The position numbers and the translations under genes are program-made. Below are positions 3,550 to 7,808 of a stretch of 14,431 nucleotides of DNA, one piece after another. The notes beneath the pieces were generated by a model. It ran no database searches and was not told where the DNA came from. It was given only the letters and a program-made list of their open reading frames with translations. Origin of the DNA: Nitrospinota bacterium (GTDB lineage Bacteria > JADFOP01); NCBI GenBank assembly GCA_022562795.1, contig JADFOP010000049.1, positions 1 to 14,431 of the forward strand, in the 5' to 3' direction. Position 1 is the stretch's first letter. Every line of letters begins with the position of its first letter.

Positions 3550-4575
3550 TCAGTTAAGGCAGACCCTCTTGAATTCCTGAAAGTTTTCCATGACCATGCC
3601 CGTCCCCCTGACGACCGCCCTAAGAGGCTCGCGGGCCCGGTAGATGTGGATATTCGTCTCCCGGTGGAGGCGGCTCCCGATGCCCCTTAGCAGCGCGCCC
3701 CCGCCGGCCAGCACAATGCCCCTCTCCATAATCTCCATGGTTACCTCCGTAGAGATGTTGTCGAAGGCCTTCGTGATGGCGCCGATGATGGCCTTGATCG
3801 GCTCGTCCAAAGCCTCTCGCAAGACCTCGTCGTTCAGGGTCAGCTTCTTGGGTATTCCACGTATGATGTCGCGGCCGCGGGCTTCGACCTGGAGACGTTT
3901 TTTAAGGGGGCTCGCGCTTCCGGCGGCGATTTTGATCCGCTCGGCCTCGAATATGCCCACCTCCATCTTATAGCGGTTACGGAGGTAGCGGACGATGGCC
4001 TCGTCCATCTCGTCGCCGGCGACCCGGATTGATTCGTTGTAGGAGATGGCCGACCGGCTTATGATGGCCACCTCGGTCGTTCCCCCCCCTATGTCGACGA
4101 CCATGCTCCCCAGCGTGTTGTCGATGTCGACCTTGGCCCCGATGGCGGCGGCCATGGGCTCTTCGATGAGGTTTATCTGGCGGACGCCGGCCTCATAAGA
4201 CGCCTCGATGACGGCCCGCTTCTCGACGGGGGTGATGCCGCTGGGGACGGCCACAAGCACCCTTGGCCGGGCGGACTTTCGCCTATGGACCTGCCGGATG
4301 AAGTACTGGATCATCTTCTGGGTGACGTCGAAATCGGCTATTACCCCGTCCTTCATGGGACGGACGACTTTGATGGAGTCGGGCGTCTTGCCGTAGAGAA
4401 TCTTGGCATTAGTTCCGATGGCGACGATGTCGCCATTCGGTCCGGAAAGGGCCACCATGGATGGTTCGTCGACGACAATCCCCTCCCCACGGACGTGGAT
4501 TAGGGTGTTGGCAGTTCCCAGGTCGATCGCCATGTCCTTGGAAAACCATCCGAAGAGCCTGCTAAATAGACCCAT
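3550..4575 (-). CDS. mreB: Rod shape-determining protein MreB
   Basis: MreB is the bacterial actin homologue. It forms membrane-bound filaments that direct lateral cell-wall synthesis, so the cell is probably a rod. The 341-residue length is standard. The start MGLFSRLFGWFSKD carries the amphipathic membrane-binding helix. Nucleotide-binding motifs are present: DLGTANTLI (phosphate 1), VVDIGGGTTEVAII (phosphate 2) and AGGGALLRG (adenosine motif). The ATG at 4575 is preceded by GAGGAGG; an in-frame start at 4590 is less likely. The gene start overlaps the end of the GAF/GGDEF-like gene by 14 bases, pointing to translational coupling. mreC and mreD, usually downstream, are absent; folE converges instead. 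No strong minus-strand terminator was found. Confidence 0.95.
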   Translation of the reverse strand: MGLFSRLFGWFSKDMAIDLGTANTLIHVRGEGIVVDEPSMVALSGPNGDIVAIGTNAKILYGKTPDSIKVVRPMKDGVIADFDVTQKMIQYFIRQVHRRKSARPRVLVAVPSGITPVEKRAVIEASYEAGVRQINLIEEPMAAAIGAKVDIDNTLGSMVVDIGGGTTEVAIISRSAISYNESIRVAGDEMDEAIVRYLRNRYKMEVGIFEAERIKIAAGSASPLKKRLQVEARGRDIIRGIPKKLTLNDEVLREALDEPIKAIIGAITKAFDNISTEVTMEIMERGIVLAGGGALLRGIGSRLHRETNIHIYRAREPLRAVVRGTGMVMENFQEFKRVCLN

Positions 4576-6078
4576 GGCGTCCCTCCTCAACGGCTACGAG
4601 CCGCCGCTCGCCACGCCGGCCCCCCCGCGCGGCCACCGCGCCCTGGGCTGCCTTGGCCAGGAGCTTATCAAGGTTTGTCGTATCATCGGGGAAGACGGCC
4701 AGCCCCGCTGTCGCATGAAGGTTGAACGGCCCGTTGGGGCCGGTGAAGGCGATCCGGCCCAGCCCGGCAATGAGCCGGTCTGCCAGGGCCCGTCCGTTGG
4801 CGGCGTTGAGCCGGTAACATAGGATCACAAAACGGCCTTCATCGTCGCGCCCCAGGAGGTCCTTATCCCCGATGTGCCCCGGCAGTGATCAGCCACCCCC
4901 CTGAGGGCCTCGTCCACAGCGGAGCGGCCGGCCGACAGCCTAAGCGCGTCAAGCTCTTGGAGGGCCAAGGTGAGACAGGCGACCCGATGGCCCTCGGCTG
5001 TCGCCCGATCGAGGAGCGCCCCCCCCAGCTCACTGAGGCGCCGGAAGTTGGATATGCCCGTAGTCGGCTCCAGGTGGGTGAGCAGTCGCTCCCGCCGCTT
5101 CGAGGCGGACGCGCTCAATGCGGCGGCCACCTGAGCGGCCAAGAGGCGCGCCGTCGAGACCTCGGCCTCCTTGAAAGCCCCTCGCCGCCGTGCGAGAAAA
5201 ACAAGCACCCCGAGAAGCTCGGCCCCGGCTACCAGGGGGACGCCCAGAAAAGCCTTCACCCCGAAGAAGGGCTCTTCGGGAGAGAAGACGAAGGTCTTAG
5301 AGTGATATTCCCGGCACTCGGTCAAGGCCAGGGCCTTGGAGTTTCGAATCACCCACCCGGCAAGGCTTTGTTCGAGGCTGACCTCCAGCTCCCGGCAGTT
5401 GGGCATCCCCTCCCCGGCAGAGCTGACGACCCGGCAGGCGCCGTCCTCCTCACCCACGAGGGCCACCGCGACCGCGTCCGCCCCTACCAGGTCCGGCGGA
5501 CAGGCCACCGCCGCCTCGACCACCGACGCCGGGTTTATGGCCTGGCCCAAAGAATCGCATACGGCCAGAAGGTTATCTATGGCTGACGTGTTCTGGACCA
5601 TGAGGGCCTGGACGGTGCTGTTATGAAACCACCGACCCACGTGGTCGGCGAAGAGGGTCATCAGTTTTTGCATCCTTGGCGGGAAGACGTAGGAGCGCTT
5701 GCTGTCGATGGCCAGCACGCCCCTTCTCTCGCCTACCGGGATGGGAACGGCCAGGAAGCTCTTGATCTCCTCGTCGGCCCGATAGAAGCCGAGGGTGGTG
5801 GTTTCAGGCTTGAAATCGCTTACAACGATGGGCTCCCCGTTGGCGGCTACCCAACCGACGAGGCCGCTTCCTACCTCGATTATGCACTCAGGAATAATGT
5901 GGGGGCTCAAGGAGTGGCATGCAGCGAGGGTTAAGGTGTCGCCATTATCGGAAGGGAGAAAGATCGCAGCGGTAAAGGCCTCGGCGACCGATGCGATTAG
6001 CTTGATGAGATGGTCGATATCGCGGTCAAAGCCCATGATGCCTAAGAAACGTCTCCAAGCATCCAATCGGGAAGGCAC
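4562..6078 (-). pseudogene. GAF-GAF-degenerate GGDEF protein, split by a frameshift
   Basis: The first frame (6078-4825) encodes a GAF domain at about residues 20-150, a second GAF at about 165-320, and the start of a GGDEF-like domain (LEPTTGISNFRRLSEL...). It ends early. The rest of that domain continues in another frame to 4562, including RFVILCYRLNAANGRALADRL and HATAGLAVFPDD. Restoring one base near the CCCC run at 4877-4880 joins the frames as ADHCRG-HIGDKDLLGRDDEGRFVIL. At the GGDEF position the sequence reads DEGRF, so diguanylate cyclase activity is unlikely even if the gene is intact. GAF domains usually sense small ligands, so a signalling or scaffold role is inferred. The start is uncertain: GTG 6078 has no clear ribosome site, and ATG 6036 is an alternative. 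The gene end overlaps mreB. Either a real mutation or a sequence error could explain the shift. Confidence 0.75.
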
Positions 6079-6086
6079 GCATCGTT

Positions 6087-6116
6087 AACATAACACAAAA
6101 AGGCCCAAGCCTTCAA
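6087..6116 (-). promoter_or_regulatory. Weak candidate promoter upstream of the GAF/GGDEF-like gene
   Basis: On the minus strand TTGAAG (6116-6111) and TATGTT (6092-6087) are 18 bases apart. It overlaps the terminator-like hairpin that follows the phosphatase gene. If used, the start point lies almost on the GTG at 6078, which would favour a later start codon. Confidence 0.3.
6097..6113 (-). terminator. Terminator-like hairpin after the phosphatase gene
   Basis: Read on the minus strand, AAGGC-TTGG-GCCTT is followed by a short T-run (TTTGTG). The stem is only five base pairs, so termination may be partial. It lies about 40 bases after the phosphatase stop codon. Confidence 0.4.
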
Positions 6117-6154
6117 GCGGATTTTCTTGTCTTTCGTTCCGGGAGCAGTAAAGG

Positions 6155-6625
6155 TCAGCCGCCTAGGGCAAGACCATCCGAGGCCAGGAACCCATTGAGG
6201 GCCTCCTGGAGCTCCACGGCGCAGGCGCGGTAATGGAAGGCGCTACCGCCGTAAGGGTCGGGAATCCCACGGTCCGGATCATCCCCAGGCCCGTAGGCGC
6301 CGAGCAGCCAGACCCTCTCAATTGCCTCGGGCGCCATAGAGCTTACGAAATCCCGGTGCTCATGCGTCATTACCAGTATGCAATCGGCCCACTGGATAAG
6401 CTCCTCGGATATCATCTGACCCCTGTGTTCGCTCACGTCAGCTCCAAAGGGCTTCAGGGCCTCGTGGACCAGAGGCTCCGCGGGCCAGTCAACCAAAGCG
6501 GCTATTCCGGTGCTCTGCACCTCGACGCCGTCCACGCCTTTGTCGGCCAGAGTCTTTTGCAATAGCCCAACCGCCATGGGGCTGCGGCAGATGTTGCCGG
6601 TGCAGACGATTAGAACTCGTTTCAT
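6155..6625 (-). CDS. Low-molecular-weight protein-tyrosine phosphatase
   Basis: The 156-residue cytoplasmic protein has the full LMW-PTP architecture. The P-loop CTGNICRS at the N-terminus gives nucleophile C8 and R14 (C-x5-R). The general-acid loop DPYGGS (D123) lies near the C-terminus, and the length is typical. In the related arginine phosphatase YwlE a Thr occupies the P-loop position that is Ile here (I12), so a phosphotyrosine-type specificity is more likely than phosphoarginine. The ATG at 6625 overlaps the stop of the nuclease-like gene in ATGA, a sign of translational coupling. LMW-PTPs often accompany exopolysaccharide tyrosine kinases, but none is seen here. The partner appears to be the upstream nuclease-like protein. 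Confidence 0.9.
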   Translation of the reverse strand: MKRVLIVCTGNICRSPMAVGLLQKTLADKGVDGVEVQSTGIAALVDWPAEPLVHEALKPFGADVSEHRGQMISEELIQWADCILVMTHEHRDFVSSMAPEAIERVWLLGAYGPGDDPDRGIPDPYGGSAFHYRACAVELQEALNGFLASDGLALGG

Positions 6626-7548
6626 AGGGTCGGGGGGATATTGAGAACGGGGGCGGTCGGCCTGGCACGGGTACCGAGAAAATCCCTGAGACAGACGGTG
6701 AAGTTACCCGCGACATCTGGTCTGGCATTTACGATGTATAGGGAATTGTTGACGTGGAAGAGCTCGTCTTGGAGGCGAGAGACGGGGTATTGCGTAGCCG
6801 CAGGCCCATACTCATCCGCCAGGACCTCCTCGACCATGGGTACGATTTTATCGGCCATTCTGAGCTCCGTGTCCTCAAAGAATATGGCCATCTGTGGCTT
6901 CAAGGTCCGCACCCTCCGAAAGAAGGCGGCCAGCTCGGGGCTCGCTATGTGCTTGGGAGGGGCGCTCTTGACCTCCACGTAGACCATGTGTCCCTCCACG
7001 AAGGCTATCACGTCGTAGTCTCCACCGTGCTTGGTGTCTCGAAGGGTGATGCCCCAGGAGGCCTCGCAGCCTAACTCTCGTCGGAAGAGCTCGGCCACGA
7101 ACCATTCCAGGGTCTCACCGAAGCTGTCCCTGGCCCCAGCCGCCATCCGCCATCTCTGGGGGCCGGCCGGCTCTACGAGGCCGAGTTCGACGGCCTGCTC
7201 GACGTATCGCTCACACTGCTCCCGGGCACAATAGCGGGTGAGGCTACCAATGGTGAAACCCTCAGCCTCCCTTATCATATCCCTCAACACGAGGCGGAAG
7301 GAGTACTTCTTAAGCCACTCGTAGAAGGTATCGAGAAAACCTGCATCAGCGCCGATGGGAAAGCAACATGCCTCGAGGGGCTCGGCCCGATGGATGTCAA
7401 AGCCCCGCCTGGCCAGGCGGTTGACGACCGACTCCCCGGCGCCGTCGATTCGACGTGCGATAGCCTGGACCTCCCGGCGCAGCGATGCCAGCTCGGCCAC
7501 AACGGAGGTTAAGTCATCTTTGTCGCTAATAGTGGTGGGGTCATTCAT
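6622..7548 (-). CDS. Coiled-coil, PD-(D/E)XK nuclease-like protein
   Basis: From the ATG at 7548 the product has 308 residues. The N-terminus holds a short predicted coiled coil (SVVAELASLRREVQAIARRI). A middle region with a winged-helix look follows (FTIGSLTRYCAREQCERYVEQ, shortened here: residues about 98-118). The C-terminal half has the pattern of a restriction-endonuclease-like fold: a glutamate in FGETLEWFVAEL (E145), then GGDYDVIAFVEGHMVYVEVKS with D177/D179 and the E192-x-K194 signature. The catalytic residues appear intact. It resembles the uncharacterised coiled-coil plus nuclease proteins grouped as COG5493 or DUF3782, but I could not test this. A further 43 upstream codons are open; I reject them because they cover the upstream gene. 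The ATG overlaps that gene's stop in ATGAATGA. Repair, defence or RNA processing are all possible roles. Confidence 0.7.
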   Translation of the reverse strand: MNDPTTISDKDDLTSVVAELASLRREVQAIARRIDGAGESVVNRLARRGFDIHRAEPLEACCFPIGADAGFLDTFYEWLKKYSFRLVLRDMIREAEGFTIGSLTRYCAREQCERYVEQAVELGLVEPAGPQRWRMAAGARDSFGETLEWFVAELFRRELGCEASWGITLRDTKHGGDYDVIAFVEGHMVYVEVKSAPPKHIASPELAAFFRRVRTLKPQMAIFFEDTELRMADKIVPMVEEVLADEYGPAATQYPVSRLQDELFHVNNSLYIVNARPDVAGNFTVCLRDFLGTRARPTAPVLNIPPTL

Positions 7549-7735
7549 CGGACAGATTTGCGTCGCGGCGACGAACATCCCTATAGTGCTTTTCGAACTG
7601 GTCGACGAGTTTATCGATGTCCGGGCGCTTGGTTTTAGCTTTTGGTCGGCCACCGAAGCGGTACAGGAGGTAGGCAACGAGGAGGCCCACGATGAAGCCC
7701 ACCCCTAAGCCATCAAGGAAGAACTGGTAATTCAT
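7541..7735 (-). CDS. Small single-pass membrane protein
   Basis: A 64-residue protein, MNYQFFLDGLGVGFIVGLLV..., has one transmembrane helix at about residues 8-25. It is followed by a basic stretch (RFGGRPKAKTKRP) and a charged helical tail (DIDKLVDQFEKHYRDVRRRD). By the positive-inside rule the tail is cytoplasmic. No family is recognised. An in-frame GTG at 7771 would add twelve residues, but it lies at the predicted transcription start. The ATG at 7735 follows GGAGGGAG. The gene's last codons overlap the start of the nuclease-like gene by eight bases. It may anchor the nuclease or phosphatase at the membrane (inference). Confidence 0.65.
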   Translation of the reverse strand: MNYQFFLDGLGVGFIVGLLVAYLLYRFGGRPKAKTKRPDIDKLVDQFEKHYRDVRRRDANLSDE

Positions 7736-7765
7736 CCCACGGCTCCCTCCCGACGAACCATCATC

Positions 7766-7777
7766 GGGCACGTGCCC
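7766..7777. promoter_or_regulatory. Perfect 12-bp palindrome at a predicted transcription start
   Basis: GGGCACGTGCCC is fully self-complementary with no spacer. It covers the predicted +1 of the promoter at 7780-7808. This is a plausible operator for a dimeric repressor. No regulator gene is adjacent. Confidence 0.45.
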
Positions 7778-7779
7778 CT

Positions 7780-7808
7780 AATATGACAGGGCGAGCCGGA
7801 TAAGTCAA
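7780..7808 (-). promoter_or_regulatory. Predicted sigma-70 promoter of the TM-nuclease-phosphatase cassette
   Basis: On the minus strand TTGACT (7808-7803) and CATATT (7785-7780) are 17 bases apart. The predicted start near 7773 gives a leader of about 38 bases before the ATG at 7735. It separates this cassette from the upstream dnaN-VWA pair. Confidence 0.6.

What the first reader, a model, noticed from the sequence alone, without database searches (positions are those of the whole stretch)
6097..7808. Self-contained three-gene cassette: TM peptide, PD-(D/E)XK nuclease-like protein, LMW tyrosine phosphatase
The three genes overlap (ATGAATGA, then ATGA), have their own promoter and operator-like palindrome, and are followed by a terminator-like hairpin. 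A nuclease with intact-looking catalytic residues coupled to a phosphatase and a membrane peptide is not a combination I know. It could be a phosphorylation-controlled, membrane-tethered nuclease for defence, repair or stress. The function is inference; the gene overlap and motifs are visible.
Basis: partly seen in the sequence, partly recalled or inferred. Interest (0 to 1): 0.6.

Follow-up and report, generated by a model that had tools for sequence, protein, structure and literature searches.

The report
CARF-less Can2-like nuclease in phosphatase operon
The genes are real and belong to one operon: the nuclease is an undescribed, vertically inherited cousin of the CRISPR-activated nucleases Can2 and Card1 that lacks their signal-sensing domain, and its pairing with a tyrosine phosphatase is seen in only two bacterial lineages, so it is an interesting new nuclease family rather than an established phosphorylation-controlled system.

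Summary
Three minus-strand genes with 8-nt and 4-nt overlaps encode a 64-aa single-TM protein, a 308-aa PD-(D/E)XK protein and an intact LMW tyrosine phosphatase. They are not a self-contained cassette. Homology with the sister genome runs without break from the promoter through all three genes and on through a GAF/GGDEF gene and mreB. The terminator-like hairpin and the palindrome are not conserved and are expected by chance. The nuclease is the main result. Its AlphaFold model (pLDDT 90.6) matches the winged-helix plus nuclease half of the type III CRISPR effectors Can2, Cdn1 and Card1 and of VC1899 (Z 12-13). It has no CARF domain; a coiled coil takes its place. Catalytic residues D177, D179, E192 and K194 are invariant in 82 of 82 homologues. 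No Pfam, NCBIfam or PADLOC family recognises it. It is usually single-copy, largely follows phylum and is absent from searched viruses and plasmids, so it looks like a housekeeping gene. Its usual Nitrospirota partner is a Cys4 microprotein. The phosphatase follows the nuclease, overlapping it, in only two lineages (this genus and one Ca. Tectomicrobia genome). The TM gene sits beside the nuclease only in this genus. Phosphorylation control and membrane tethering are untested.

The parts
7780..7808 (-). promoter: TTGACT, 17 nt, (TG)TCATATTA
   Evidence: scan; -35 and -10 blocks conserved in sister genome L008 at the exact start of homology
7766..7777 (.). 12-bp palindrome GGGCACGTGCCC just downstream of the -10; probably chance
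   Evidence: sequence; broken in L008; about 3.5 expected per window
7541..7735 (-). 64-aa single-TM protein, C-terminal basic/amphipathic tail (ATG start; GTG at 7771 is an alternative)
   Evidence: 81% identical in L008, dN/dS about 0.13
6622..7548 (-). 308-aa coiled coil + winged helix + PD-(D/E)XK nuclease, related to the C-terminal half of Can2/Card1
6155..6625 (-). 156-aa low-molecular-weight protein tyrosine phosphatase, CTGNICRS P-loop and DPYG
   Evidence: Pfam LMWPc 2.2e-28
6099..6114 (-). terminator-like hairpin, not conserved, probably not an operon end
   Evidence: stem broken in L008
4562..6036 (-). GAF-GAF-(degenerate) GGDEF gene of the same conserved block; reading frame shifted near 4870 in this assembly
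   Evidence: one 491-aa frame in L008
3550..4575 (-). second mreB of the genome, overlapping the GAF/GGDEF gene by 14 nt; last gene of the block
   Evidence: same overlap in L008

Best explanation
The operon is built round a CARF-less relative of Can2/Card1. SHOWN: the predicted fold (coiled coil 9-37, winged helix about 69-135, PD-(D/E)XK core 143-225, C-terminal helix/strand region), invariant catalytic residues, operon structure with translational overlap, and largely vertical, usually single-copy inheritance. INFERRED: the N-terminal coiled coil holds two subunits together in place of the CARF dimer, so that the paired PD-(D/E)XK sites, with metal, nick or cut DNA (or RNA, as Can2 does) in a housekeeping nucleic-acid process rather than in CRISPR defence. 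Activity is probably set by partner proteins that differ between lineages: a Cys4 microprotein in Nitrospirota, and in this genus possibly the co-translated 64-aa membrane protein. The overlapping LMW-PTP (its Ile in the P-loop predicts phosphotyrosine rather than phosphoarginine as substrate) most likely reverses Tyr phosphorylation made by the two BY-kinases of this genome. Whether the nuclease is one of its substrates is unknown.
For: AF2 model pLDDT 90.6, pTM 0.85. Foldseek top hits Cdn1, Can2 and VC1899, E down to 1.5e-5. VIA Z 13.4 to Can2 7bdv over 194 residues, model 37-288 on chain 139-365; the first 14 rows are all Can2/Cdn1/Card1/Can1/VC1899, the next unrelated rows are Z 8.9. hhalign of A2 against Card1-domain proteins aligns E148 with E234, D177-x-D179 with E269-x-D271, and E192-x-K194 with E-x-K, P = 0.0016. 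SthCan2 E276/D278 and TsuCan2 E302/K304 are the residues mutated to inactivate those enzymes (PMC7969007). Catalytic residues 82/82. Tree largely follows phylum; single copy in nearly every positive genome. Sister-genome homology covers promoter to mreB without break. Nuclease-LMWP overlap and GAF/GGDEF-mreB order in Tectomicrobia L024. Two BY-kinase-type genes in G000; the other LMWPc protein there has an arsenate-reductase-like P-loop CTGNSCRS. Precedent: B. subtilis PtkA phosphorylates and activates the ssDNA exonuclease YorK (PMC4304235).
Against: No biochemical data. Sequence similarity to Card1 is weak: no PF09002 match was listed for P0002 even at E 10. The phosphatase tree is unresolved and its linkage to the nuclease occurs in only two lineages, so functional coupling may be coincidental. 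Dimerisation by the coiled coil is inference, and many deltaproteobacterial members appear shorter at the N-terminus and may lack that segment.
Confidence: 0.55

Rival explanations
1. The nuclease and phosphatase only share a transcript. The phosphatase belongs functionally with GAF/GGDEF and MreB (envelope and cell-shape signalling), and the nuclease is an unrelated housekeeping enzyme.
For: The phosphatase is absent beside the nuclease in all other lineages examined, while LMWP-(155 aa)-GAF/GGDEF-mreB and LMWP-GAF/GGDEF-mreB follow it in both lineages that have it. The nuclease has other partners elsewhere. The P0003 homologues whose flanks were checked are in unrelated contexts.
Against: The tight 4-nt overlap is with the nuclease, in both lineages, whereas about 117 bp separate LMWP from GAF in the window.
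Confidence: 0.3
2. It is an anti-phage defence cassette: a membrane-held nuclease released or activated by dephosphorylation.
For: Fold shared with CRISPR defence nucleases Can2/Card1. A Card1-like protein with two N-terminal hydrophobic segments and a coiled coil exists (L150). Weak PADLOC Csx1 and CARF-PDDEXK scores in a few members.
Against: No CARF; no homologue in phage, plasmid or viral collections; inheritance largely by phylum and usually single-copy; Nitrospirota neighbours are lpxK, kdtA, folK, UPF0047 and DUF116 genes.
Confidence: 0.08
3. The combination is an accident of gene order in one small genus, with no joint function for any of the three genes.
For: The trio including the TM gene occurs only in the two genomes of this genus. 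TM-protein homologues in other phyla lie in other contexts such as next to UvrD.
Against: Double translational overlap kept across about 0.8 synonymous changes per site; nuclease-LMWP overlap also in Tectomicrobia.
Confidence: 0.25

Closest known systems
Can2 / Card1 / Cdn1 (DUF1887, Pfam PF09002 Card1_endonuc + PF23400 CARF_Card1)
   Same: Winged-helix-like plus PD-(D/E)XK half, catalytic acidic-x-D and E-x-K motifs
   Different: No CARF domain, so no cyclic oligoadenylate sensor; N-terminal coiled coil instead; largely vertical inheritance; not found by PF09002
VC1899 (PDB 1xmx), CRISPR-independent DUF1887 protein
   Same: Same nuclease half (Z 12.2); not linked to type III CRISPR according to PMC7969007
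   Different: VC1899 still carries a CARF domain
CARF-less Card1-domain proteins with UPF0150 (L153, L155) or two hydrophobic segments plus coiled coil (L150)
   Same: Same idea of swapping the sensor domain; L150 puts a hydrophobic N-terminus and a coiled coil in front of the nuclease
   Different: Separate sequence families, recognised by PF09002 (L150 above its cut-off, L153 and L155 just below)
LMW-PTP (Wzb/Ptp type, PF01451)
   Same: CX5R P-loop, DPY(G), Ile at the Tyr-specific position
   Different: Coupled to a nuclease gene rather than to a BY-kinase gene

Membership tests
PD-(D/E)XK nuclease superfamily | fold and catalytic D / ExK residues | tested here: met
   AF2 and VIA Z 13.4 to Can2, 8.9 to AF1548; D177, D179, E192, K194 82/82
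Can2/Card1 (DUF1887) | winged-helix-like + nuclease C-terminal half | tested here: met
   model 37-288 on Can2 139-365
Can2/Card1 (DUF1887) | N-terminal CARF domain | tested here: not met
   residues 1-37 are disordered plus one helix; no CARF_Card1 match although L147 gives 1.2e-16
Can2/Card1 (DUF1887) | match to PF09002 over its curated cut-off | tested here: not met
   not listed for P0002 at E up to 10; not among the 25 families shown for the 82 homologues; no match in G000
Can2/Card1 (DUF1887) | association with type III CRISPR | tested here: inconclusive
   no cas gene among the window ORFs scanned with Pfam; the genome was not searched for cas10
LMW-PTP | CX5R(S/T) P-loop and D-P-Y general acid | tested here: met
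   CTGNICRS and PDPYG in P0003; LMWPc 2.2e-28 over the whole domain
Protein arginine phosphatase (YwlE/PtpB) | Thr at the P-loop position that is Ile in Tyr phosphatases | tested here: not met
   Ile in P0003; rule from PMC8001253
Anti-phage defence system (PADLOC-DB) | confident match to a defence-protein model | tested here: not met
   P0002 none; best of 82 homologues 4e-4 in one or two members

The most novel reading that the evidence does not exclude
The CARF sensor of a Can2-type nuclease has been replaced by a phosphotyrosine switch and a membrane anchor. The 64-aa TM protein holds the coiled-coil nuclease at the membrane, and the co-translated LMW-PTP sets its activity, tying DNA or RNA cleavage to BY-kinase signalling and to the MreB/GAF envelope module of the same operon.
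Probability: 0.1. Interest if true: 0.78.

Novelty: new variant of a known kind. Interest (0 to 1): 0.43.

Why it matters
Can2 and Card1 are known as cyclic-oligoadenylate-activated CRISPR effectors. A family with the same nuclease half but no CARF, conserved through much of the sampled Nitrospirota phylum and in deltaproteobacterial groups as a usually single-copy gene, suggests that this nuclease module also serves an older or parallel housekeeping role. It comes with partner genes (Cys4 microprotein, LMW-PTP) that make the question testable. It is unrecognised by Pfam, NCBIfam and PADLOC, so it is a concrete target for assay.

Tried and rejected
Pfam, NCBIfam, PADLOC and PDB sequence searches gave no confident family for the nuclease. 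NOV_C, DUF4143, Hjc and UPF0102 were weak hits, all (to my knowledge) of the same superfamily. mCpol/OptS E 0.04 aligns only to the N-terminal helix region and was rejected. A defence-system reading was rejected on inheritance and collections. Co-inheritance of the phosphatase with the Tectomicrobia copy could not be shown: the LMWP tree is unresolved, and the Tectomicrobia LMWP ranks about 31st by similarity to P0003. Search for a TM small gene upstream of other nucleases: a first scan missed the positive control and was discarded; the repeat recovered the control and found plausible cases only in this genus. The ZapG-like hit of the TM peptide (E 0.1) is not significant. The Cys4 microprotein model is poor (pLDDT 55), so no fold claim is made.

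Full report
OBSERVATION. The three genes, their overlaps and the promoter-like sequence are at the stated coordinates. The TM gene is most likely read from ATG 7735: the upstream GTG extension is not conserved in the sister genome, where the -35 and -10 blocks and the ATG are. All genes of the block evolve under purifying selection: dN/dS about 0.13 (TM), 0.15 (nuclease), 0.21 (phosphatase), 0.20 (GAF), 0.15 (MreB) against G001/L008. The hairpin and palindrome are within chance expectation and are not conserved.

EXTENT. blastn of the window against the sister contig gives one unbroken match from 7819, just upstream of the -35, to 3581, inside mreB; the DNA upstream of the promoter is unrelated. 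The unit is therefore promoter - TM - nuclease - LMWP - (about 117 bp) - GAF/GGDEF - mreB, the last two overlapping by 14 nt. G000 has a second, more canonical mreB elsewhere. The GGDEF part lacks the signature motif (GRDDEG in the window, GRDEEG in L008), and the window copy of the gene is frameshifted near 4870, probably in a G run.

NUCLEASE. No curated family recognises it. A genome scan found 109 homologous stretches, of which 80 loci were fetched, in Nitrospirota, deltaproteobacterial groups (Myxococcota, Thermodesulfobacteriota), Nitrospinota and Ca. Tectomicrobia. In a sample of the phylum of G262 (Nitrospirota, by its sequence similarity to the named loci), 97 of 345 genomes and 73 of 156 genera have it, in nearly every case once; across 386 genomes of the domain, 22 have it. 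Viral, phage and plasmid collections gave none. The tree largely follows phylum. An 82-sequence alignment shows invariant E148, G175-G176-D177, D179, E192, K194, P197-P198, R212, D226-T227 and, in the N-terminal part, G49 and Y82/F84/R85. The AlphaFold model (pLDDT 90.6, pTM 0.85) has a coiled coil (9-37), a helix-rich winged-helix region (69-135), the nuclease core (143-225) and a C-terminal helix/strand region. Foldseek and VIA-align place it with the C-terminal half of Can2, Cdn1, Card1, Can1 and VC1899 (Z up to 13.4, 194 residues, 3.7 A), clearly above the ArsR and other winged-helix matches at Z 8.9. Profile comparison with Card1-domain proteins aligns the catalytic motifs in the same register (weak alone). 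The Can2 literature names the acidic-x-D and E-x-K residues that align here (PMC7969007). The CARF domain is missing, so cyclic-oligoadenylate control is not expected.

PARTNERS. In Nitrospirota the nuclease is typically followed, often with a 4-nt overlap, by a 50-60-aa protein with a CxxC-A-W-R-xx-C ... C pattern that no Pfam model matches, and preceded by UPF0047 or DUF116 genes with lpxK/kdtA or folK nearby (the lpxK, kdtA and folK names are my reading of the sequences). None of these partners is in the window. Among about 130 nuclease-bearing loci examined (some of them duplicates), an LMW-PTP adjoins the nuclease only in the window genus and in one Ca. Tectomicrobia contig, where the start codon overlaps the nuclease stop and GAF/GGDEF and mreB follow, with one extra 155-aa ORF between. 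That shared order points to an old gene block in these two lineages. But the phosphatase tree cannot show that the two phosphatases are sisters, and by similarity the Tectomicrobia copy is only about the 31st best match. The TM gene adjoins the nuclease only in the two genomes of the genus (the Tectomicrobia contig ends before that position). TM-protein relatives in other phyla sit in other contexts.

MECHANISM. Shown: the predicted fold, invariant catalytic residues, operon structure and largely vertical inheritance. Inferred: a dimeric, metal-dependent nickase or RNase in a housekeeping role, with lineage-specific partner proteins. The phosphatase has Ile at the P-loop position that separates Tyr from Arg phosphatases (PMC8001253). 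It is the only LMW-PTP of this type found in G000, the other LMWPc protein having an ArsC-like P-loop, and the genome has two BY-kinase-type genes. A Card1-like protein in G049 (L150) with hydrophobic N-terminal segments and a coiled coil fused to the nuclease shows that membrane attachment of this nuclease module probably occurs elsewhere; this is an analogy, not proof.

VERDICT. The trio is real, but it is a lineage-specific part of a five-gene operon. The valuable content is an undescribed CARF-less family next to Can2/Card1; literature searches found no description of it, within the held open-access library. New variant of a known kind; interest 0.43.

Noticed in passing
L036:6798-6956 and about 43 other Nitrospirota loci: A 50-60-aa Cys4 microprotein (C..CAWR..C.....C) directly follows the nuclease, often with a 4-nt overlap; no Pfam family, AF2 model poor.
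   Followed up: partly
window 6036-4562: GAF-GAF-GGDEF gene with degenerate GGDEF motif and an apparent one-base frameshift near 4870; intact in L008.
   Followed up: partly
L008 near 6040: The sister genome's phosphatase gene is frameshifted at a G run after PDPYG; the rest of the frame is preserved, so probably an assembly error.
   Followed up: no
L153:796-1884, L155:826-1884: Card1-like nucleases without CARF that carry a UPF0150 domain (PF21748, resembling TTHA0281) at the N-terminus instead.
   Followed up: partly
L150:712-2442: Card1-domain protein with two N-terminal hydrophobic segments and a coiled coil in front of the nuclease, no CARF match.
   Followed up: partly
L193, L194: Relatives of the 64-aa TM protein lie between a UvrD-like helicase gene and a phosphoglycerate-mutase-like gene in another family.
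   Followed up: partly
window 3550-4575 and G000:C26:16872-17852: Two mreB genes in the genome; the one in the window is the less canonical (408 against 511 bits).
   Followed up: no
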